Origin: Planctomycetia bacterium
Lineage (GTDB): Bacteria; Planctomycetota; Phycisphaerae; UBA1845; UTPLA1
Direction of reading: 5' to 3'
DNA length: 64,000 nucleotides
NCBI GenBank assembly: GCA_015200345.1
Contig: CP054187.1
Span: 1,534,470-1,598,469, forward strand
Shown here: one piece after another, positions 52,843 to 64,000 of the stretch
Layout of the letters: each line of letters begins with the position of its first letter
How positions within the stretch are numbered: position 1 is the stretch's first letter
Position numbers and translations under genes: made by a program
The notes under the pieces: model-generated
What the model was told of the DNA's origin: nothing
Database searches by the model: none
The model's input: the letters and a program-made list of their open reading frames with translations, nothing else

Positions 52843-53265
52843 CTACTCGGCGTAGGCAGCGAGCGCCTTGCGCAGGCCTGCGGGCAGCGGCTCGGGCACG
52901 ACTTCATCACCGCGACGGCGCATGCAGGCGATCTGCTGCTCGCCGCGAGCAGCCAGTTCCTCGCGCCCACCGCGAATGCGGAAATATTCGAACTTCATCG
53001 TGACCTGGTTCTGCGTGAGGCCGGCCAGCCGCATGCGAATCAGCACTTCGTCAAAGGCGGTCAACTCCGCGAGGTATTCACACGATACGCGCGTCGTCAC
53101 CAGCGCCAGGCCGTGGCGCAGCTCGTCCAGTACTTCCGGCGCATGATCGCGCAGAAACATCTCGCGGCAGCGACCCTGCCAGCGCACATGATTGGCGTAA
53201 TAGACATTCCCCACGAGGTTCGTCTCTTCGAACCCCACCACGAACCGGCACTCATACGCCCGCAT
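52843..53265 (-). CDS. Enediyne-type hotdog thioesterase (CalE7/SgcE10-like, TEBC)
   Basis: A 140-residue hotdog thioesterase. The block ETNLVGNVYYANHVRWQGR with REMFLRDHAPEVL is the hallmark of enediyne thioesterases such as CalE7 and SgcE10, which release the nascent polyene from the PKSE carrier protein. The Asn, Tyr and Arg of this block correspond to the residues important in CalE7. FDEVLIRMRLAGLTQNQVTM and EQQIACMRR also match. The start MRAYECRFVVGFEE lies 14 bases inside the end of the PKS gene, so the two are coupled. It is smaller than general acyl-CoA thioesterase neighbours would require, and the context makes the enediyne branch far more likely. Confidence 0.9.
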   Translation of the reverse strand: MRAYECRFVVGFEETNLVGNVYYANHVRWQGRCREMFLRDHAPEVLDELRHGLALVTTRVSCEYLAELTAFDEVLIRMRLAGLTQNQVTMKFEYFRIRGGREELAARGEQQIACMRRRGDEVVPEPLPAGLRKALAAYAE

Positions 53266-56200
53266 GCCGCGCCCCCGCTGATTCGTGCATCGCCAGCAAG
53301 CCCACGGCCACCGCAGGCCGGCCTCCACGTTCTGCGAACACGACTGTCATTGATATGGCACCGCCCGCGCGAATCGTGAGCCACCCGTCGCGGTGGAACT
53401 CCTTGAGCGTCAGCGGAACATCGTGCGGCAGCCCGGCCTTTGCCGCGCATTCGATCACGGTCCACACGCGAGTCGCCGCCGCGTCGAGCGATTCACCCGC
53501 CACGCCGGCAATCTGTTCGGCCAGCGCGAACCGCGCCGTGCCGAGCAAGCCGCGCCAGGTATCACGCGGGCGCGATGTCACCAGCTCGACGTCGCAGCCG
53601 AGCCGGGTGGCGTCGTCCGCAACAATGGCGAGTGTCAGGCCCGCGCCGTGCGACGTCGACACGCTGCGGCCGTCCCACGCTTCCGGTTTTCCGTCGGATC
53701 GGTGCGACCAGCGCGAATCCGAATCCAACAAATCACTTAGCGCCGCATCCGATTGCGCGCGACGGTTCATCGTAGCGGAGTCAGTGCCGTTTCCACCGTG
53801 GCCGTTTCCGTTCGCGCTCGGCTGCGGCGCGCCATGCTCCTCAACCAGCGCGACTCGCACCGAGGCACCAATCAGATCCGCCGCGCGCCGTTCAAGACTG
53901 GGCGCGAGCAGGACCGGCGCGTGCGCCCCGTGATGAGCAGCGGGCGCAATCGCTCGAAGTTTCAGCCCGTGCCATGCCTCGATCAACTCGCCGTCCGGCG
54001 CGAAGACCTGCACGTCGTAAACGAAGTCCGCGCCGCTGTGCGATCGCTCGCGCGCCTCGACGTAACGCGCCGAATCGGCTCGCACCGCGTGAACGTCGAG
54101 GCGCTCGACGCCGGTGGGCAGAATCGTCGCGTGCGGAATGCATGCCTGAATCGCATGAATCGTGCCGTCGCGCGCGGCCGGGCAGCCCAGCATGAGATCG
54201 GCCGGCAGATACGATCCGAACCAGCGGCGAGCGCCGCCATTCACAAGGTCGTCCGTCGCAGCTTCACCAAGTTCCGCGAGACACGCCTTCGCCGCGAGCA
54301 CGTGATAGCCTCGCACAACGCGGAAGCGGCCGGTGTGAAAGAGCAGCTTGCCGTATAGGTCGGCATCGGGAATGAGATTCAAGCGCGGCGGGAGCGTGGC
54401 AGGCGTCATCCGGGCCGAAACGTTCCGGCTCGGTTGCAACGCCGAATCGAAACGGCAGATGGCGCGGAAATGATCGACGGCGAAACCGGTTTGCGCACTG
54501 CGCACCGCCACGTCGATCGTTCCGTCCTCGCGCACGAGCGCGGCAATGCGAATCGTCACGCCGCCGTCGGGCACGACGACGGGCTGGGCTAGCTCTACAT
54601 CTTCGAAGCTCGGCGGCGTTTCGGTTCCTGCGACGGCCATCGCGACCTGCGCCATCGCCTCCAACCCGAGGACGGCCGCGAACAACCGCTCGCCGTGGAA
54701 CACATGATCGTCCAGGTACGGATCGGTCGAGGGAGAGAGCTTCGCGTCGACCACCAGCTCGATGCCGGGATAATAGACACGCGGCGATTCCAGGAATCGG
54801 CGGAACGGCAGCGGCGGCCCTTCCAGCGTCAGCGTCGGCGCGTCGCCGAACCGGCTCGTCACCAGCACGCGCGACGGCGTATCGTGCGAAAGCAAGCGCT
54901 TCATCACGCGCACGCCCTCGTCCGGCGTGATCGCGCGAATGCCCTGCCGCGCCAGCGCGTCGATCCGGCCCAGCCGCTCGCCCATGCCGACGCCAGACCA
55001 GACCGACCACTCAATCGCCAGCGACCGGCAGCGCGGATGCTGCGCGCCCCACCGCTCCACCAGCGACGCCAGCCAGTCGTTCGCCACGGCGTAATCCGCT
55101 TCGCCCGCCATGCCGGCTCGCGCGATGAGCGAGCCAAACGCGACAAACAGCTTCAATCGATCCGCATTCACCGCCGCCAGCACGTTCCGCGCCCCCTGCA
55201 CCTTCGGCCGCAGCGTTTCATGGAACGACGCCTGGTCCAGATGCTGAATCAGCTTGGGCGTGTTCGCGCCGGCCCCGTGCAAAAACGCCGTCACCGGACC
55301 CAGCGCTCGCTCGGCCTCGCGCACCGCCGCCGCCACCGACTCGGCGTCCGTCACGTCGGCGCGAAGATACTTGAAGGAAACGCCCGACTGCTCGAACCGC
55401 GCGAGATTCGACGCCAGCTCTGTATCGCGCGACGGATCCGACCGCCCGAGCAGGGCCAGTTTGACGCCTGTCTCACGAGCCAGATCCAGCGCGCACTCCG
55501 CGGCGATGCCCTTGCCGCCCCCGGTCACAAGCAGAACGTCATCCGCGGTGAGTGACGTGACCGTGCCTGTCGCCAAGGCGCCAATCGCGCAAGCGGTCGA
55601 ATCATCCCCCTCTCCGTGCGTCATCCCCACGAAATCGATTGCTTGCGCCATCGGCTGCTTCAGCGGCGTCAGGACCGGTTCGTACCGCCGACCCCGCGCA
55701 TCGTAGCGCACTTCACGGAAACCCTCTGCATGCCGCGTCTCCGCCATCACCCAATCGGCGGCCTGTTCATGCGCCGTCGGCACATGGACCACGCTCACCG
55801 CGACATGCGGCGCCTCGAGATGCAACGTCCGCGCGAACGCCTCGGCTCCCATTCCCCCGGGCAACTCGCCCGCACGCGAATCCTGCACAATCACCAGCCG
55901 CGCCGGGCTGTTGTCCCGTAATACGGCCCGCGCGCCTTCCAGCAACATGGCTGCGCTGCTCTCGGCGTATTGCGGCGGCACGCAAACCAACACGCCCGCG
56001 CCGCGACCGCCCCGTGCCAGCGCCGCGCTGATCCGACCCTTGAACGGACACAATTGATGCGCGATCACCCGCCAGCCATCGGCCGACGCCGCCAACGGCG
56101 ATTCGAACTCATGATCTCGTAGCGACTCATGCGTGTCACTTCCGTCGAACGCGCCGGCCGACCGCAACGGCCGCTCGCGCCACGTCACCGCAAACGGCCG

Positions 56201-59200
56201 CACCCAGCTATCGACTCCGGCGGGCGGGGAATCGTCCGGACTGCTCGTGCCATCGGCTGCCGCGCCGCCGATCGCGCGAAGCTCGTCCAGCGCCTGCGCC
56301 AAGCCGCCAACGGTCGCACCCGCGTAGGCCGTCGGCGAGACCGGCGCGGGTAACCCCAATCGCTTACAGGCGGCTACCGCGATTTGCCCGACCACGATCG
56401 AATTGAGGTGCAGATCGCCCAGCAGGCGGCTGCTCTCCGTGACCGACTCCGCGGGCAGCTCCGCCTTCTGCGCGACCAGCTCGCGAATGACATCGAGGGC
56501 CGATTCGCCGGAATCCGATACGACGCCGACCGCTGTGCTCACGGCAGCGTACTCCGGCACGGAGGCAGCGCCCGACAAAGCGACGACGCCGGCGCGATCA
56601 AGAACCGGCGCCGATTCACACGGACTGGCGATGAATCGCGGACGCCGATTCAAATCGAACGGCCGCGTCAGGCGATCCTCAAACAAAGCCCGCACTCGAA
56701 CCGGCGCGCCGACCGCGTGAACCGCTCCGGCGGCGCAGAGCAAACCGCGTACCGATTCGCTCGCGGCATCCATCGAAACCACGGGCGTCGGCGCAAATCG
56801 GCTGACCAATCCACCCAGAACACGACCCGGTCCGGCCTCGATCAGCAGATCCACGTCGTGGGCCATTCGCCGGACGGCCTCGGTGAAGCGGACCGGCGCG
56901 ATCACCTGCGAAACAAGTAATGCTTCGATATTTTCGCCTGCGGTCAGTTCGCGCCCGGTGATCGTCGACACGACCCGGCGCAACGGTGGCCGGAGCGATT
57001 CGCGACGCAACTGCTCCGCGAGCGGCCCGGCGGCCCGGCTGACCAGTGGCGAATGAAATGCGTGCGAAACTTTGAGGCGCGTCGCACCGATTCCGCGCGC
57101 ATCGGCCCGGGCCATGATCTGCGCCACTGCCTGGCACTCACCCGACACCACTGTCAAATCCGGCGCGTTGATCGCGGAGACGACCGCGCCCGTACCCGCT
57201 GCCAGCGCCTCGACCTCGTCGGCCGAAGCCATGATCGCCGCCATCGCGCCGTGCGGCTCGGGCAGGTCGGCCATCGCGCGGCCGCGCACCCTGGCGACGC
57301 GCAGCAGCGCCGATTCGTCCATCGCGCCGGCCCAGTGCAGCGCCGTCAGTTCGCCCAGACTATGCCCCGCCGCGATCTGCGCGGCGATGCCCAGCCGGCC
57401 CAGCGCCCGCAGCGCCGCCAGCTCCGCCGCCACGATCGCCGGCTGCGCGACATCTGTCTGCACGTCATCGCCGTGCATCGGCAGGTCCGCCGCATCATAA
57501 AGCGCGCGCACAGTTTCAAACCGATCGCGCCAGGCGCCGCCATCGCGCCGAGCCGCGCAGCCCTGACCGGGAAAGATCAGGCCGATCCGCGGCGATGCGT
57601 GACCACTTCCCAGGAAGACGCCTGTCGCATCGATGCGATTCGTCTCGCCCGAGTCGATCCACTCAACCAACCGCCCCGCCCGTTCAGCCAACTCGCTCGG
57701 CGTGCCGGCCACCACCGCCCCGCGCCAGGCGCGGTTCGCATCGGTTCCGATCGAATCTCCCTCGCGATCCGCGCGGTTGGCCAAGTCCGCCGCAAGATCG
57801 ATCAGCTCGGCGCGCGATAGATTCGGCGCGATCGCCGCCACACGAGATGCTTGTTCGCGAAGCACCGAGGCGGACGCCGCGGAGAAAACGAACAACTCCG
57901 CATCCTGCGCAAACGAATGCTGCCGACGCAACCGAATCGTGCGCGCGGTCGGCCCGCGCGGCGGCCCCTCCAGCACGACATGCGTATTCAACCCACCGAA
58001 ACCCATGGCGCTGACCGCTGTGCGCATCGGCTCGGTGCGATCCCACGCCTCGGGCGCGCGCGCCACGCGCAGCGCCGCATCCTTCTCGCGAAGAATCGCA
58101 TGCGGCTCACCGCAGCCGGTGATCGGCGGAATGACGCCTTCGCGCGCTGCCACCGCCGCCTTCAACAATCCCGCCAGGCCCGCCGCCGCCTTCGTATGCC
58201 CGATGTTCGCCTTGATGGAGCCGATCGCCGCGGGCCGGGCCGCGCCCGCCTCGCGCCGAGCGGCCGTCAGCACGCCCAGCTCCGTCTCGTCGCCGACGCG
58301 CGTCCCGGTGCCGTGGCCCTCAAAGTAGTCAATCGTATCAATCCCGAAACCCGCCCGCTGATAAGCCCGCTTCAGCGCCAGCCGCTGCCCCGCAGGCTCC
58401 GGCCGCGTGATGCCGCCGCTGCCGTCCGACGAAACCCCCCAGCCGCGAATGACCGCGTGAATCCGTCGGCCCTGCGCGATCGCTTCCTGCTCGCGCATCA
58501 GCACGACAAAGCCGCACCCTTCGCCCGGCCAGAACCCCGACGAGCGCGCGTCATACACGCGCATATCGTCACTCGCCAGCGCGCCGGCCTTGGCGAAGCC
58601 GATCAACTCGAACGGGTCGAGGCTCAAGTCCACGCCGCCGGCGATCGCGATATCCAGATCGCCCGCGACAATCGCCGAACAGGCATTCGACACCGCCAGC
58701 AGCGACGCCGCGCAGGCGCCGTCCAGTGTGTATCCGCCGCCCTTCAGATCGAAGTGATTGCAGATGCGCCCGGCGATCGTGTTCGACAGCCCGCCCGCCA
58801 GGGTCTCCTCGTTCACCGTCGGGAACGGCTGCTTGTATCGCGGTTCGAGCGTTTGCAGAAACGACTCGATCTCCTCCGATGTGCGACCCTGTTCGGCCAT
58901 CGCCGCGCCAACCACGCGCCGCACGTACGGCCAGCGCAGCCGAAGCACGTTCGCGCGCGACGTATCACCCGTCAGGGTGTTGGCCAGTAAGACACCGGTC
59001 GATTCTTTCGGAAGGTCGGCGCCGCCCTCAAACCCCGCGTCGGCCAAAGCCTGCGTCGCGATGTCCAGGGCCATCCAGTGCGCGAGATCGGCCGAGCGGA
59101 ACTGGCTGCCCGAGACGCGAAACGTCACGCGGTCAAACTCATAACCCTCGATCAGCGCCGCCTCGCAGGAGTAGGTGCGATCTTCGGCCGCGCGATCGCT

Positions 59201-59356
59201 GGAGAAATAATCCTCCATGCGCATCCGTTCGGGCGGCATTCGTCGAAACGACCGCCGCTGCGCCAAGACATTCTCCCAAAGCTCCGACGGCGTGCGAGCG
59301 TCCGGATACCGGCAGGCCATGCCCACGATTGCGATGCCGTCGCGACGAGGTGTCAT
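53252..59356 (-). CDS. Enediyne-type iterative type I polyketide synthase (PKSE)
   Basis: A 2,034-residue PKS with all domains of the enediyne type. KS: C215 in TLDGACAASL, H348 in FEGHGTGT and H387 in ANIGHTKA, after the family block PPERMRMEDYFSSDRAAED. AT: S666 in AAGHSLGEL and H768. ACP: S986 in LGDLHLNSIVVGQ. KR: TGGGKGIA at 1278-1285, S1409 and Y1422. DH: H1551 in YLDDHVFHGERL and D1730 in AARDGTIHAIQACIP. PPTase: GCDVELV at 1920-1926 and the WTVIECAAKAG motif at 1965. The integrated PPTase and KS-AT-ACP-KR-DH order are diagnostic. Known PKSEs make a linear polyene from malonyl-CoA in the cytoplasm. The ATGA overlap with the DUF1702 gene fixes the start; 141 upstream codons are excluded. 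Confidence 0.95.
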   Translation of the reverse strand: MTPRRDGIAIVGMACRYPDARTPSELWENVLAQRRSFRRMPPERMRMEDYFSSDRAAEDRTYSCEAALIEGYEFDRVTFRVSGSQFRSADLAHWMALDIATQALADAGFEGGADLPKESTGVLLANTLTGDTSRANVLRLRWPYVRRVVGAAMAEQGRTSEEIESFLQTLEPRYKQPFPTVNEETLAGGLSNTIAGRICNHFDLKGGGYTLDGACAASLLAVSNACSAIVAGDLDIAIAGGVDLSLDPFELIGFAKAGALASDDMRVYDARSSGFWPGEGCGFVVLMREQEAIAQGRRIHAVIRGWGVSSDGSGGITRPEPAGQRLALKRAYQRAGFGIDTIDYFEGHGTGTRVGDETELGVLTAARREAGAARPAAIGSIKANIGHTKAAAGLAGLLKAAVAAREGVIPPITGCGEPHAILREKDAALRVARAPEAWDRTEPMRTAVSAMGFGGLNTHVVLEGPPRGPTARTIRLRRQHSFAQDAELFVFSAASASVLREQASRVAAIAPNLSRAELIDLAADLANRADREGDSIGTDANRAWRGAVVAGTPSELAERAGRLVEWIDSGETNRIDATGVFLGSGHASPRIGLIFPGQGCAARRDGGAWRDRFETVRALYDAADLPMHGDDVQTDVAQPAIVAAELAALRALGRLGIAAQIAAGHSLGELTALHWAGAMDESALLRVARVRGRAMADLPEPHGAMAAIMASADEVEALAAGTGAVVSAINAPDLTVVSGECQAVAQIMARADARGIGATRLKVSHAFHSPLVSRAAGPLAEQLRRESLRPPLRRVVSTITGRELTAGENIEALLVSQVIAPVRFTEAVRRMAHDVDLLIEAGPGRVLGGLVSRFAPTPVVSMDAASESVRGLLCAAGAVHAVGAPVRVRALFEDRLTRPFDLNRRPRFIASPCESAPVLDRAGVVALSGAASVPEYAAVSTAVGVVSDSGESALDVIRELVAQKAELPAESVTESSRLLGDLHLNSIVVGQIAVAACKRLGLPAPVSPTAYAGATVGGLAQALDELRAIGGAAADGTSSPDDSPPAGVDSWVRPFAVTWRERPLRSAGAFDGSDTHESLRDHEFESPLAASADGWRVIAHQLCPFKGRISAALARGGRGAGVLVCVPPQYAESSAAMLLEGARAVLRDNSPARLVIVQDSRAGELPGGMGAEAFARTLHLEAPHVAVSVVHVPTAHEQAADWVMAETRHAEGFREVRYDARGRRYEPVLTPLKQPMAQAIDFVGMTHGEGDDSTACAIGALATGTVTSLTADDVLLVTGGGKGIAAECALDLARETGVKLALLGRSDPSRDTELASNLARFEQSGVSFKYLRADVTDAESVAAAVREAERALGPVTAFLHGAGANTPKLIQHLDQASFHETLRPKVQGARNVLAAVNADRLKLFVAFGSLIARAGMAGEADYAVANDWLASLVERWGAQHPRCRSLAIEWSVWSGVGMGERLGRIDALARQGIRAITPDEGVRVMKRLLSHDTPSRVLVTSRFGDAPTLTLEGPPLPFRRFLESPRVYYPGIELVVDAKLSPSTDPYLDDHVFHGERLFAAVLGLEAMAQVAMAVAGTETPPSFEDVELAQPVVVPDGGVTIRIAALVREDGTIDVAVRSAQTGFAVDHFRAICRFDSALQPSRNVSARMTPATLPPRLNLIPDADLYGKLLFHTGRFRVVRGYHVLAAKACLAELGEAATDDLVNGGARRWFGSYLPADLMLGCPAARDGTIHAIQACIPHATILPTGVERLDVHAVRADSARYVEARERSHSGADFVYDVQVFAPDGELIEAWHGLKLRAIAPAAHHGAHAPVLLAPSLERRAADLIGASVRVALVEEHGAPQPSANGNGHGGNGTDSATMNRRAQSDAALSDLLDSDSRWSHRSDGKPEAWDGRSVSTSHGAGLTLAIVADDATRLGCDVELVTSRPRDTWRGLLGTARFALAEQIAGVAGESLDAAATRVWTVIECAAKAGLPHDVPLTLKEFHRDGWLTIRAGGAISMTVVFAERGGRPAVAVGLLAMHESAGARHAGV

Positions 59357-60369
59357 GAAACCCCCTCCCGCAGCCTCGCGCTGATGGCCGCACGCCAGGC
59401 CTCGAACGCCGTACCGTCGCCGTTTTCGGGCGCAACGACATCGAGACATTCGTCTGTGATGCGTGCCGCCGCATCCGCCGACAAGCCGCACAACAAACGG
59501 CACGCCCGATCGGTGTGCTCGGCCGGATTGCCGGCGCGCTGCCTCGCCTTGGCCGCGAAGGCCGCCCCCTGCCCCAGCGAAAAGCGATGCTCGACCGCCA
59601 GCGCCGCCAAGCACTCGAGGTCGGACGATTCGACGCCGCCGGCGTAGGCACACGCCAGCCCGACCCCACTCCAAAGATCGGCGCGCCGGGCCGCATCCAT
59701 CGCGACGATCTGCTCCGCGATCCGCGAAACATCCGCGCCCAGCGCGAACCACATGCCGCGGCCCAGGCCCATGTCCCACGCGCGCAGCGCGTAGCCGTGC
59801 AATCGACGCGGTCGATCCCCGCGCAGCACGGCCCGCGCAGGATGAAAGTACGCGTCATGAAACGCCCATCCGTCGATCGCCAGCCAGCGCAGCAATGGGT
59901 CCATTCGACTCAACGATTTGCCGATTCCCATCGGCAGCCGCGCCATGGCCCAGCCCGCTCCGACGTACACCATGTAAACGTGTGCGCTTCCCACACCGGT
60001 GACCAAGCGCTGCCAGCGCGAGCGATTCCACGGCGTCAGCGCGTCGAGCAGGTACAACGCCATGGCCGCGCCTTCAAAAGCAAAGCCGCGCCGCTCGTGA
60101 TCGGCCGTCTCCAACCGTTCGGCCAGCTCCGTGAGATCCGCCGAATCCAACGCCGCGTGGTAACCATAGACAAACGTCTCACCGATCTGTTCCAGCCGCG
60201 CCCCGGCGCGCGGGTGAACCGCCGTCACGCCGCGTCGCGCAAGGGTAATCTCGCGAAGATCAATGCCCAGCAGCCGACGACGAACCGCACGCCAAAACGA
60301 ACTTCCCGCAGCGCGCCGCGATGATTCGGCGCGGGCCGTGACCGGCTCACCGCATGCGGTGGTTGCCAT
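59353..60369 (-). CDS. DUF1702 (UnbL-type) enediyne cassette protein
   Basis: A 338-residue protein of the DUF1702 family, a constant partner of enediyne PKS genes (UnbL type). Landmarks are RAVRRRLLGIDLREITLARR, FVYGYHAALDSADLTELAE, RGFAFEGAAMALYLLDALTP, VYMVYVGAGWAMARLP, GMWFALGADVSRIAEQIVAM and ADLWSGVGLACAYAGGVE. Its chemistry is unknown; the family is considered part of warhead formation. No signal peptide or clear membrane helix is visible. The start MATTACGEPVTARAE has GGAG spaced 7 bases. It is the first gene of the three-gene operon and overlaps the PKS gene by four bases. Confidence 0.9.
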   Translation of the reverse strand: MATTACGEPVTARAESSRRAAGSSFWRAVRRRLLGIDLREITLARRGVTAVHPRAGARLEQIGETFVYGYHAALDSADLTELAERLETADHERRGFAFEGAAMALYLLDALTPWNRSRWQRLVTGVGSAHVYMVYVGAGWAMARLPMGIGKSLSRMDPLLRWLAIDGWAFHDAYFHPARAVLRGDRPRRLHGYALRAWDMGLGRGMWFALGADVSRIAEQIVAMDAARRADLWSGVGLACAYAGGVESSDLECLAALAVEHRFSLGQGAAFAAKARQRAGNPAEHTDRACRLLCGLSADAAARITDECLDVVAPENGDGTAFEAWRAAISARLREGVS

Positions 60370-61031: not shown

Positions 61032-63086
61032 ATGGCGATTTCGCTGCGATTGCTGGTAATGGCGTCCGCGCTGATTGGCGGATACGTCTGGGTTCGCCCC
61101 GCGCCGCCGGAGCGACCGGCCGCGCACGTGCGTTTTGAGGAACGCGCCGCGGCCGCAGGCTGCCGTAATGTTCACTCGATGTGCCGGCTCCATCCGGCCT
61201 TTGAGAACATCATGCCGTGGTTGTCGTCGGTCGGAGCGGCGGCGGCTGCGGCGGACTACGACGGCGACGGCTTCGCCGATTTGCATGTCACGCAAAGCGG
61301 CCGAGGGCAGGCGAACCGGTTGTTTCACAATCGTGGGGATGGGACGTTTGAAGACGTGACGGCGGCGGCCGGCGTCGGCATCGGCAACGCGGCCGGGGCG
61401 TGCATGCACGCGATCTGGGGCGATCTCGACAACGACGGCGACCTGGACCTGTACGTGATCAAGTGGGGCGATAGGAACACGCTTTTTCGCAACGAAGGCG
61501 GCGGGCGGTTCACCGATATCAGTAAAAAGTCGGGAGTCGATTTCTGGGGCTACGGCAACGCGGCGACGTTTTTCGACTACGACCGCGACGGGCATCTCGA
61601 CATTCTGCTCGGCAACTATTTCGCCGACACCATCGTGGACGAGAAGACCGGCAGCAGGGTGCGCAACGATTTGTGGAACCCCGTCTCGACCAAAATCATG
61701 CACGAGACCTTCACCCACGCGGCCAACGGCGGGCGAAACGTGCTCTATCGCAATCGCGGGGACGGCACCTTCGAAGACGTCACGACCGCCGTCGGCATGA
61801 CCTTTCACGGCTGGACGCTGTCGGTCGGCGCGGGCGATCTGAACAACGACGGCTGGCCCGATCTGTACATCGCCAACGATTTCGGCCCCGATGAGTACTA
61901 CCTCAACACCGGCGCGACGGAGCAGCCGCCGCGCTTCCGGCTGGTGATCGACCCGCGCGGCCATCCCGGCGTGGGCAACGACTGGTGGAAGGGCATGAAC
62001 GTCGATTTCGGCGACGTGAACAACGACGGCTATCTGGATATCTACGTGACAAACATCCTCTCGCGCAAATACAAGACCGACGAAGGCAACATGCTCTGGC
62101 TCAACTGCGGCGACGCCGCGATGACCGGCGGGCGCGGTTTCAAGAACATCGCCGAACCGGCCGGCGCAATGGACGGTGGCTGGGGCTGGGGCGGAAAGTT
62201 CGCAGACTTTGATCTCGACGGTTTGATGGATATCTTCACCGTCAACGGCTTCGTCACCGGCCACCCCGATCGGACGTATTGGTATCACATTCAGGAGATG
62301 GTGACGCAGACGAAGAATCAGACCGTGGACACGCGCGACTGGCCGGTCATGGGCGATCGCGATCTCTCCGGTCGCGAGTTGAGTCGATTGTTCATGCAGC
62401 TTCCAGCCACCGCCGATCGCATCCAAAGAACCGATCACGCAAGCGATCGAATCGAACGCGCCACGAGCAAAAGCCAGCGAGCCGCGGGCGAAAGCCAGCG
62501 AGCCGCGGGCGAAAGCCAACGAGCCGCGGGCGAAAGCCAACGAGCCGCGGGCTTCAGCCCGCGCGGCGCTACGAACGGGAACGAACCCCGTTTTTGCGAT
62601 GCCGCCGAAGCTGCCGGCATCACGGACACGTACAACGGCCGGGGCATCGCGCTGGCGGACTACAATCACGACGGATTGCTGGATATCTACGTTGCCAATC
62701 AGGGCGCGCCGTCTTCGTACTACGTCAATCGCACCACGCCGCCGGTCGGCGCGTCGTTCCTTCGAATCCAACTCATCGGCCGACCCGATCTGCCCCTGCG
62801 GCTGGGCGGACGTACGCTCGCGTCCACGACGAACGCCGTCGGTGCGAGGGTCACGATCCAGACCTGCGCCGGCATCATGATGCGCGAAGTCCAGGGCGGC
62901 ACCGGTTACTCCTCGCAATCGGAGTATCCGCTGCACTTCGGCGTGCCAAATCCCGCGGCCGTCGAGCGCATCACCGTACAATGGCCCAGCGGCCGCACGC
63001 AGGAGGTCACCGACGACGCGGCGCGCAAACTGGTGGGACATCACCTTCGCTGGGTGGAAGGCGCGCAGCCGGAGGTGCGAAAATGA
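61032..63086 (+). CDS. FG-GAP/ASPIC-UnbV protein (CRTAC1 family)
   Basis: A 684-residue exported protein with FG-GAP (VCBS) beta-propeller repeats and a C-terminal ASPIC/UnbV domain. It starts MAISLRLLVMASALIGGYVW with GAGGG spaced 6 bases. FG-GAP units carry calcium-loop patterns such as ADYDGDGFADLHVTQSG, GDLDNDGDLDLYVIKWG, FDYDRDGHLDILLGN and GDLNNDGWPDLYIANDFGPD. The C-terminus has ALADYNHDGLLDIYVANQG, VGARVTIQTCAGIMM, GYSSQSEYPLHFGV and ITVQWPSGRTQEV, the ASPIC/UnbV signature. UnbV genes are part of the enediyne cassette, but the same family is also common in planctomycetes outside it. A 21-base tandem repeat lies in the linker. Confidence 0.92.
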   Translation: MAISLRLLVMASALIGGYVWVRPAPPERPAAHVRFEERAAAAGCRNVHSMCRLHPAFENIMPWLSSVGAAAAAADYDGDGFADLHVTQSGRGQANRLFHNRGDGTFEDVTAAAGVGIGNAAGACMHAIWGDLDNDGDLDLYVIKWGDRNTLFRNEGGGRFTDISKKSGVDFWGYGNAATFFDYDRDGHLDILLGNYFADTIVDEKTGSRVRNDLWNPVSTKIMHETFTHAANGGRNVLYRNRGDGTFEDVTTAVGMTFHGWTLSVGAGDLNNDGWPDLYIANDFGPDEYYLNTGATEQPPRFRLVIDPRGHPGVGNDWWKGMNVDFGDVNNDGYLDIYVTNILSRKYKTDEGNMLWLNCGDAAMTGGRGFKNIAEPAGAMDGGWGWGGKFADFDLDGLMDIFTVNGFVTGHPDRTYWYHIQEMVTQTKNQTVDTRDWPVMGDRDLSGRELSRLFMQLPATADRIQRTDHASDRIERATSKSQRAAGESQRAAGESQRAAGESQRAAGFSPRGATNGNEPRFCDAAEAAGITDTYNGRGIALADYNHDGLLDIYVANQGAPSSYYVNRTTPPVGASFLRIQLIGRPDLPLRLGGRTLASTTNAVGARVTIQTCAGIMMREVQGGTGYSSQSEYPLHFGVPNPAAVERITVQWPSGRTQEVTDDAARKLVGHHLRWVEGAQPEVRK
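62472..62555 (+). repeat. Four tandem 21-base repeats inside the UnbV-type gene
   Basis: Units of the form AGCC(A)GCGAGCCGCGGGCGA encode SQRAAGE in frame. The fourth unit ends TTC and runs into the palindrome GCGGGCTTCAGCCCGC. The repeat lies in a low-complexity linker between the propeller and the last FG-GAP block. Confidence 0.85.
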
Positions 63087-64000
63087 CCTTGCACGCTTGC
63101 CGCGCCCCAGTGCGCCGCGCACTGGTTCGTCCGGCCTGGTTGGTGATCGCGGTGATTGCCGCCGGGACCGGTGCGTTCGCCTGGTCGCGTGTCGGACTGC
63201 TCGATCTGCCGAGCGTGCCACGCGATCTCGCGCTCGACGCGACCGGGTTGGGCGAGCTGGCCGCAATGAAGCAGCTCGACGACGCCCTCCACGCGCCGCA
63301 ACGTTCCGATCAGAAAGCCGATCGCACGGGCGATCACCCTTTGTCGCCCGCCGCTCAACGTGTTCGCGACGGCCTGAATCTGATTCGCGCCGGCCAATCC
63401 GAAGCCGGCCTCGTTGCCATGCAGCAAGGCGTCGCGCAGGATCCCGACAACCTCGTGCTGTCCAACGCCTACCGGATGGCGTGCTTCAAACTTCGCCGCG
63501 CTGCGATGGCTGATGCGCGCCGGGCGTCCGCTTCGCCGGTTGCCGCGACCGGCGCGGTCAATTCCGTCTTTCCCGCCTACCTCGAAACACAGCCGATCGC
63601 GCTGTTGGAAAAGTTGGTGAAGGAACACCCCTCGCGCGAAACGCGACTCGCCCTGGCGCTCGCGTGGGTGGATGAAATGCTGCTCTTCCCCGCGCTGGAA
63701 GTCAAAGCTCCCGCCAGCGTCGAAAGCGTGCGCGAACTCACCGCCATCCTTGATGGCGCCGGTACGATCAAGGCAACGCAGGCGACCGCCAATCCGTACT
63801 ACGTTCCCGCGCTTTTCGCGCGGGGGTTGAATCACCTGCATCGCCCCGCGCGGCTTGTCTGGCCCGAGGCCGACAAGACGCCGCCCGATGCCGCCGTGCA
63901 GGACATCGGCCGCTGCATCGCCGTGGGCCGGAAGTTCAACGTCGGCGCGGCGCGGCTTCAGGCCACGCTCGCCATCGCGCTGGGCGACGCGTACGTCAAG
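63083..64000 (+). CDS. Membrane-anchored protein with repeat region, 3' end outside the window
   Basis: At least 306 residues, cut by the window end. It overlaps the UnbV-type gene by four bases (ATGA), with GGAGG spaced 7 bases, so it is strongly coupled to it. After an N-terminal helix (PAWLVIAVIAAGTGAFAWSR) comes AAQRVRDGLNLIRAGQSEAG and GVAQDPDNLVLSNAYRMACF, which resembles a TPR helix pair. Later parts (ETRLALALAWVDEMLLFPAL; YYVPALFARGLNHLHRPAR) look helical as well. Pairing of CRTAC1/UnbV genes with TPR proteins is known in planctomycetes. I cannot name a function. Confidence 0.75.
   Translation, partial: MTLHACRAPVRRALVRPAWLVIAVIAAGTGAFAWSRVGLLDLPSVPRDLALDATGLGELAAMKQLDDALHAPQRSDQKADRTGDHPLSPAAQRVRDGLNLIRAGQSEAGLVAMQQGVAQDPDNLVLSNAYRMACFKLRRAAMADARRASASPVAATGAVNSVFPAYLETQPIALLEKLVKEHPSRETRLALALAWVDEMLLFPALEVKAPASVESVRELTAILDGAGTIKATQATANPYYVPALFARGLNHLHRPARLVWPEADKTPPDAAVQDIGRCIAVGRKFNVGAARLQATLAIALGDAYVK

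What the first reader, a model, noticed from the sequence alone, without database searches (positions are those of the whole stretch)
52843..60369. Enediyne-type PKS operon in a planctomycete-like genome
Three overlapping minus-strand genes encode DUF1702 (UnbL-type), a full KS-AT-ACP-KR-DH-PPTase PKSE and a CalE7/SgcE10-type thioesterase. This combination is the core of the enediyne warhead cassette, best known from actinomycetes. In the sequence, all three genes overlap and every catalytic residue I looked for is present, so the operon looks functional. Known from the family: PKSE plus its thioesterase give at least a polyene such as pentadecaheptaene. Inference: the host makes a PKSE-derived polyene or enediyne. 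No self-resistance, halogenase or apoprotein gene is seen, so the metabolite may be simple or the rest may lie beyond 64000.
Basis: partly seen in the sequence, partly recalled or inferred. Interest (0 to 1): 0.93.

Follow-up and report, generated by a model that had tools for sequence, protein, structure and literature searches.

The report
Mixed-type enediyne gene cassette in planctomycete
A planctomycete genome carries all five core gene families of the cassette that actinomycetes use to build enediyne anticancer compounds, but two of the five are of a strongly diverged second type with an extra partner gene, shared with Ktedonobacteria, so the bacterium likely makes a polyene or polyyne relative of enediynes by a variant route that a close relative, likely already in culture, could be used to test.

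Summary
DUF1702 (UnbL), a KS-AT-ACP-KR-DH-PPTase PKSE and a CalE7/SgcE10-type thioesterase lie at 60369-52843, minus strand. The PKSE is 46% identical to SgcE; its KS groups with SgcE, apart from the host's own PUFA synthase; the catalytic residues checked are in place. New: UnbL, PKSE and thioesterase are as similar to 19 standard loci as those are to each other, but UnbV (31% against 53%) and UnbU (29% against 51%) are not; with the TPR protein they match the module in 4 of 4 Ktedonobacteria loci, and no standard UnbV/UnbU was found in these genomes. Best reading: a working cassette whose second-type UnbV-TPR-UnbU module does the post-PKS job. Exchange or early divergence is unresolved; no product is known. 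Five accessory genes of the C-1027 cluster have no homologue within 163 kb, so a mature enediyne is not indicated.

The parts
52843..53265 (-). TEBC, hot-dog thioesterase of CalE7/SgcE10 type (140 aa)
   Evidence: 4HBT_2; 59% identity to CalE7, 55% to SgcE10
53252..59356 (-). PKSE, iterative type I PKS, KS-AT-ACP-KR-DH-PPTase (2034 aa)
   Evidence: 46% identity to SgcE, KS in the PKSE group, catalytic residues aligned
59353..60369 (-). UnbL, DUF1702 protein (338 aa)
   Evidence: PF08012 355.8 bits; one DUF1702 match in the genome
60370..61031 (.). intergenic region between the two divergent gene sets, probable two-way promoter (662 bases)
   Evidence: inference from gene order; same divergence in G392
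61032..63086 (+). UnbV of second type, FG-GAP repeats plus UnbV_ASPIC (684 aa)
   Evidence: PF07593; 31% mean identity to 19 standard UnbVs, 43% to Ktedonobacteria
63083..64000 (+). TPR-like protein with one N-terminal hydrophobic stretch (373 aa), cut by the window end; it runs to 64204. Further parts lie past the window, on the + strand, in continued coordinates: UnbU of second type 64189-65220 (L001:359-1390), MMPL transporter 65240-67966 (L001:1410-4136), secreted-looking 656-aa protein with domains A and B 68446-70416 (L001:4616-6586).
   Evidence: TPR: relatives between UnbV and UnbU in 4 Ktedonobacteria and G392; no Pfam match, 'TPR' is my reading. UnbU: PF03116 39 bits (cut-off 27.7). 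MMPL. 656-aa protein.

Best explanation
The locus is a complete enediyne-type core cassette in which a standard UnbL-PKSE-thioesterase half is joined to a divergently transcribed, strongly diverged second-type UnbV-TPR-UnbU half, and together they likely make a C15 polyene and turn it into an iodinated or alkyne-bearing product. Shown: gene content, domain order, aligned catalytic residues, KS placement, the contrast in identity between the two halves, the matching Ktedonobacteria module, and that profiles of the standard UnbV/UnbU find only the second type beside the cassette in those genomes. Inferred from the characterised family (recalled): the PPTase domain arms the ACP, the KS condenses malonyl units with KR and DH acting each round, and the thioesterase releases a heptaene; the membrane and extracytoplasmic UnbV/TPR/UnbU module, with UnbL, then carries out the post-PKS oxidation or iodination that the five-gene cassette performs in actinomycetes; the MMPL protein exports the product. 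A mature ring-closed enediyne is not predicted from the neighbourhood.
For: Family scores; CalE7/SgcE10 as nearest solved relatives; SgcE 46% over 2010 aligned columns; KS tree, PKSE one side of a branch, 89/98. Identity means to 19 standard loci (17 of the 24 standard five-gene loci, plus C-1027 and G396) against those among themselves: PKSE 49/48, UnbL 45/45, TE 63/56, but UnbV 31 (max 34)/53 (min 43) and UnbU 29 (max 32)/51 (min 36); window to Ktedonobacteria UnbV 43, UnbU 34. The 4 Ktedonobacteria loci read UnbL-PKSE-TE-UnbV-TPR-UnbU; the other 24 of 28 loci with all five genes have no TPR match. Standard UnbU and UnbV profiles score the second type at 90-133 and 204-260 bits in G000, G392 and the 4 Ktedonobacteria genomes, against 517 and 1143 for the standard pair of same-family G396. 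Block conserved and under purifying selection in the same genus.
Against: UnbV-UnbU relatives also stand without PKSE in planctomycetes (L136, L140, L141; fused in L132-L135), and UnbV relatives of similar score lie elsewhere in G396 (240 bits, about 90 kb from its cassette) and at places not checked in G436 and G437 (188-226 bits), so the neighbouring module could have another job. The gene sets are divergent, not one operon. In the genus the flanks are syntenic too, so conservation there does not define the cluster. AU tests do not show a separate origin. The KS bootstrap had not settled and the tree holds no modular or aromatic PKS. The L020 genome is a MAG. No product, expression or enzymology.
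Confidence: 0.7

Rival explanations
1. The working unit is only UnbL-PKSE-thioesterase and makes a plain polyene; UnbV-TPR-UnbU is an unrelated neighbour.
For: UnbV-UnbU pairs without PKSE in the fetched stretch exist in the phylum; two MAGs with UnbL-PKSE-TE (L031, L019) show no UnbU match at all, though they are draft genomes.
Against: The same second-type module with the same TPR gene is in one run with UnbL-PKSE-TE in 4 of 4 Ktedonobacteria loci. In the host genome it is the only UnbU over 21 bits, and the one other PF07593 protein is distant (146 bits to the window's UnbV, long branch).
Confidence: 0.2
2. UnbV and UnbU here are not a separate type brought in from outside but an early or fast-evolving branch of the same cassette genes.
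For: AU tests do not reject one clade of all PKSE-linked UnbU (p 0.776) or UnbV (p 0.606) against the PKSE-free pairs, nor PKSE or UnbL trees that put window and Ktedonobacteria together (p 0.157, 0.807).
Against: PKSE and UnbL of the same loci show no such distance; in the free quick trees the standard UnbU and UnbV are cut off by a long branch with SH-aLRT 100 and the window genes fall among the others.
Confidence: 0.4
3. It is a PUFA-type or other lipid synthase that resembles PKSE.
For: PfaA model TIGR02813 matches with 487.7 bits.
Against: Cut-off is 1010 bits; the host has a separate locus over that cut-off (1549 bits) whose KSs branch apart; DUF1702 and the CalE7-type thioesterase adjoin the PKS.
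Confidence: 0.03

Closest known systems
C-1027 enediyne cassette of Streptomyces globisporus C-1027 (plasmid NZ_CP013739, L146; the record names DUF1702, CRTAC1, RnfD-type, type I PKS and thioesterase; gene names SgcE and so on are recalled, SgcE10 tied to 4i4j)
   Same: All five core families; PKSE 46%, SgcE10 54%, DUF1702 37 and 41% identical in the aligned parts.
   Different: Standard-type UnbV and UnbU, UnbL-UnbV-UnbU-PKSE in one direction with the thioesterase about 6.5 kb on, two DUF1702 copies, no gene between UnbV and UnbU, and accessory genes absent around the window's cassette.
Ktedonobacteria cassettes (Ktedonobacter robiniae, Dictyobacter aurantiacus, Tengunoibacter tsumagoiensis, one MAG; L041, L072, L079, L020)
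   Same: UnbL-PKSE-TE plus second-type UnbV-TPR-UnbU.
   Different: All genes in one direction; no MMPL relative found in the fetched flanks; UnbV 43% and UnbU 34% identical to the window's.
   Same: Whole block and flanks syntenic, block proteins 80-96% identical.
   Different: PKSE carries the name PpsE in its record; otherwise the same system.
CalE7/CalE8 and DynE7/DynE8
   Same: Thioesterase 59% to CalE7; linker-AT region matches DynE8 best among solved structures.
   Different: Only single parts compared, by sequence; calicheamicin- or dynemicin-type tailoring genes were not searched for.

Membership tests
Enediyne PKS cassette (E3/E4/E5/E/E10, PMC5181780 passages) | PKSE with KS-AT-ACP-KR-DH-PPTase, KS in the PKSE group | tested here: met
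   (PPTase by alignment with SgcE, no Pfam hit)
Enediyne PKS cassette | TEBC/E10 hot-dog thioesterase | tested here: met
Enediyne PKS cassette | DUF1702 (UnbL) | tested here: met
   355.8 bits against 25
Enediyne PKS cassette | UnbV and UnbU families present beside the PKSE | tested here: met
   PF07593 68.9 bits, PF03116 39 bits (cut-offs 23.4, 27.7)
Enediyne PKS cassette | UnbV and UnbU inside the standard clade of cassette UnbV/UnbU | tested here: not met
   outside, identity ranges do not overlap; hence filed as a variant. A wider clade of all PKSE-linked genes is not rejected
Enediyne PKS cassette | product is a heptaene, diiodotetrayne or enediyne | not testable with these tools
   no chemistry
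9-membered enediyne cluster of C-1027 type | homologues of five C-1027 accessory genes (SgcE6, P450, DUF5987, GMC oxidoreductase, TIGR03084; that these are the SgcE6-E9/E11 set is recalled) in the neighbourhood | tested here: not met
   none at E 1e-3 in 163 kb of this genome or 40 kb of G392; rest of the genome not searched
PUFA synthase (PfaA) | TIGR02813 over cut-off | tested here: not met
   487.7 against 1010.1 bits

The most novel reading that the evidence does not exclude
A second, separately evolved UnbV-TPR-UnbU membrane machine, found in two distant phyla, performs the polyene-to-polyyne step of enediyne-type biosynthesis, and in planctomycetes it comes with its own MMPL exporter and a cassette-linked secreted protein (domains A/B) that holds the reactive product outside the cell, giving a new family of polyynes or enediynes.
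Probability: 0.25. Interest if true: 0.82.

Novelty: new variant of a known kind. Interest (0 to 1): 0.6.

Why it matters
What UnbL, UnbV and UnbU do is the open part of enediyne core biosynthesis. A cassette whose PKS half is standard and whose UnbV/UnbU half differs across its length is a natural swap experiment: what the two UnbV/UnbU types share marks what the reaction needs, and the extra TPR-like protein suggests a membrane complex. The same block sits in a same-genus genome that appears to be the cultured RAS2, so product and knock-outs could be sought outside actinomycetes. It also documents a full core in a single-contig planctomycete genome; the metagenome survey I read lists other phyla for its enediyne KSs, not this one (PMC10308959, passages; literature search).

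Tried and rejected
Rejected: PUFA-type synthase. Left open: exchange against early divergence of UnbV/UnbU (AU tests not significant); my first wording, 'replaced from outside', was dropped for this reason. In one search the 16-locus family and the 11-locus family with minus-strand representatives were set aside as likely antisense frames, without a further test. The host's own FabF-like loci were meant as outgroup rows of the KS tree but gave no rows.

One search used a wrong accession (PF07779); ignore it. Papers: (enediyne with planctomycet) listed 19 papers; I read passages of two of them (PMC10308959, PMC4247773) and only the listing of the rest, none of which is headed as a planctomycete enediyne study. 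(enediyne with Ktedonobacter; CRTAC1 with enediyne; two of UnbV, UnbU, enediyne) gave 3, 0 and 0 papers. Passages were also seen of PMC5181780, PMC7374466, PMC11563203, PMC3368417 and, in its reference list only, PMC12234687. The diiodotetrayne paper (PMC11658463) and the genome-neighbourhood paper (PMC4753101) are not held; what I say of cassette products is recalled.
Full report
WHAT IS THERE. PF08012 scores 355.8 bits (cut-off 25); the PKS carries KS, AT, one PP-binding, KR and DH domains over Pfam cut-off, and the PPTase part was read from alignment with SgcE. The nearest solved structures of the thioesterase are CalE7, 4i4j, 5vpj and DynE7; 4i4j is SgcE10, since its stretch is identical to the thioesterase in the C-1027 producer's record. 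The linker-AT part matches DynE8 best. The PKSE is 46% identical to SgcE over 2010 columns; by domain KS 62, AT 49, ACP 54, KR 58, DH 42, PPTase 36%. The catalytic positions checked are filled; near the DH aspartate the window and G392 have Cys where 9 other PKSEs have Asp.

The plus-strand gene 61032-63086, 662 bases from UnbL and divergent from it, is UnbV (FG-GAP repeats and PF07593). Reading on in the same genome (3.88 Mb, one contig) gives a TPR-like protein 63083-64204 (ATGA overlap with UnbV), UnbU 64189-65220 (PF03116), an MMPL-family transporter 65240-67966 and a secreted-looking 656-aa protein 68446-70416. So all five core families are together. The genome has one DUF1702 match and two PF07593 matches, the second far away and distant. 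On the other side, below 52783, stands a DUF1501/PSCyt2-PSD1/PSCyt1 gene group of the planctomycete kind, with no biosynthetic family among its hits.

HOST AND RELATIVES. A same-genus genome, G392, is one contig of 4,324,589 bases, the length of the longest contig of the 85%-identical PKSE named for Phycisphaerae bacterium RAS2; [quoted passage not shown] The whole block, flanks included, is syntenic there, and the ten genes measured show pN/pS between 0.05 and 0.26. In the phylum sample DUF1702 is in 6 of 392 genomes, two of them weakly (28 and 60 bits); among 41 relatives in 13, of which 3 (G000, G392, G396) carry the strong type, about 356-358 bits. G396, same family, has a standard cassette in the order UnbL-UnbV-UnbU-PKSE-TE. 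Of the other strong genomes of the phylum sample, G071 shows only UnbL in the 18.9 kb fetched, G003 shows UnbL, UnbV and UnbU up to a contig end, and G335 shows UnbL-UnbV-UnbU-TE with no PKSE in 20 kb. Beyond the phylum, 525 thioesterase relatives were confirmed in genome contigs and the best 80 were kept; 68 of the 80 show PKSE and 28 all five genes within the fetched flanks, many of the others being cut by contig ends or the 10 kb flank. Enediyne-type loci outside actinomycetes were already in print for Herpetosiphon (PMC3368417, passages), Cyanobacteria (PMC4247773, passages) and, as KS sequences, several phyla (PMC10308959, passages).

KS TREE. 53 rows: 44 PKSE rows (window, G392, G396, C-1027 and 40 of the 68 loci with PKSE, chosen by me), three rows called PUFA (two of the host's own PUFA locus; the third, from G107, I put there without a test) and six single KSs used as root. 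PKSE forms one side of a branch (89/98; bootstrap not settled; 90% of 200 bootstrap trees), window and G392 inside it together with SgcE. Modular and aromatic PKSs were not in the tree.

THE MIXED CASSETTE. Of the 28 five-gene loci 22 read UnbL-UnbV-UnbU-PKSE-TE, one reads UnbU-PKSE-TE-UnbL-UnbV, one has a second UnbV-UnbU pair, and four, all Ktedonobacteria, read UnbL-PKSE-TE-UnbV-TPR-UnbU. UnbV of those four scores 410-423 bits against the window's, the other 36 loci with UnbV at most 244. Mean identity to 19 standard loci (17 of the 24 standard five-gene loci, plus L146 and L162; seven left out by my choice), against identity among those 19: PKSE 49/48, UnbL 45/45, TE 63/56, UnbV 31/53, UnbU 29/51, without overlap of ranges for the last two; Ktedonobacteria show the same pattern. 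In free quick trees the standard UnbU (31 rows) and UnbV (30 rows) are cut off by a long branch with SH-aLRT 100; these rows include G003 and G335, where no PKSE was seen. Window and Ktedonobacteria fall on the other side with UnbV-UnbU pairs that have no PKSE in the fetched stretch. Profiles of the standard UnbU and UnbV score the second type at 90-133 and 204-260 bits in G000, G392 and the four Ktedonobacteria genomes and find no copy like that of G396 (517 and 1143 bits); two further UnbU matches there are weak (20-21 bits). UnbV relatives of 188-240 bits also occur in G396 away from its cassette and in G436 and G437. AU tests do not settle history: one clade of all PKSE-linked genes is not rejected (0.776, 0.606), and PKSE and UnbL trees do not reject window with Ktedonobacteria (0.157, 0.807). 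So a two-type cassette is shown; exchange is not.

ACCESSORIES. Close MMPL relatives adjoin cassettes in other phyla (for example L021, L056, L068, L070, L057; 8 of 80 loci by the plain search) and in G396. The 656-aa protein has two domains without a Pfam match: domain A or B occurs in 15 of the 80 loci, L067 only weakly, and domain B is in 8 of 392 genomes of the phylum, 3 of them (G000, G003, G335) among the 6 DUF1702 genomes, near UnbL in each (about 9 kb off in the window's genome, within 3 kb in the other two); the chance of 3 or more is 1.1e-4 for 6 genomes (2.2e-5 if only the 4 strong ones, chosen afterwards, are counted), without correction for kinship. Domain A is in 7 of 392, two of them DUF1702 genomes.

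MECHANISM AND LIMITS. From the characterised family (recalled): self-arming of the ACP, iterative condensation with KR and DH, release by the thioesterase, and post-PKS work by UnbL/UnbV/UnbU, which in actinomycete cassettes gives iodoheptaene, diiodotetrayne and pentaynes. UnbV and the TPR-like protein have one N-terminal hydrophobic stretch each and UnbU seven hydrophobic stretches, fitting a membrane and extracytoplasmic module. Five accessory genes of the C-1027 cluster have no homologue within 163 kb, so I do not predict a mature enediyne; the rest of the genome was not searched for them. The step assigned to the second-type module is inference.

Noticed in passing
L164, L165, L166, L169 (G431, G413, G425 same order; G395 same family): A distant DUF1702 (120-132 bits) stands beside two single ketosynthase genes with Cys-His-His in place in three loci (one KS before a contig end in the fourth); L164 also has two domain A proteins and a close MMPL relative. 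It looks like a type II-style counterpart of the cassette.
   Followed up: partly
L142 (G133): A UnbV-TPR fusion frame (1035 aa) next to a weak DUF1702 and a KS-like gene that lacks the Cys-His-His residues.
   Followed up: partly
L138 (G335): UnbL-UnbV-UnbU-thioesterase-MMPL in a row with no PKSE match in the 20 kb fetched.
   Followed up: no
L001:4616-6586 (window coordinates 68446-70416): Unnamed secreted domains A and B recur beside PKSE cassettes in several phyla; possible carrier or binding protein.
   Followed up: partly
L132-L135 (G255, G214, G149, G178): UnbV and UnbU fused into one long frame, without PKSE or DUF1702 match in the fetched stretch.
   Followed up: no
L031 and L019 (Pirellulales and Verrucomicrobia MAGs): UnbL-PKSE-TE with no UnbU match in the genome: possibly a reduced, polyene-only form, or missing data.
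   Followed up: no
G000:C1 about 2320000-2330000: The host also has a PUFA synthase locus over the PfaA cut-off.
   Followed up: no
G000:C1:3531319-3532857: A second gene of the host with two domain A copies, far from the cassette.
   Followed up: no
P0122: The RAS2 PKSE is named 'Phthiocerol synthesis polyketide synthase type I PpsE' in its record, a misleading name.
   Followed up: no
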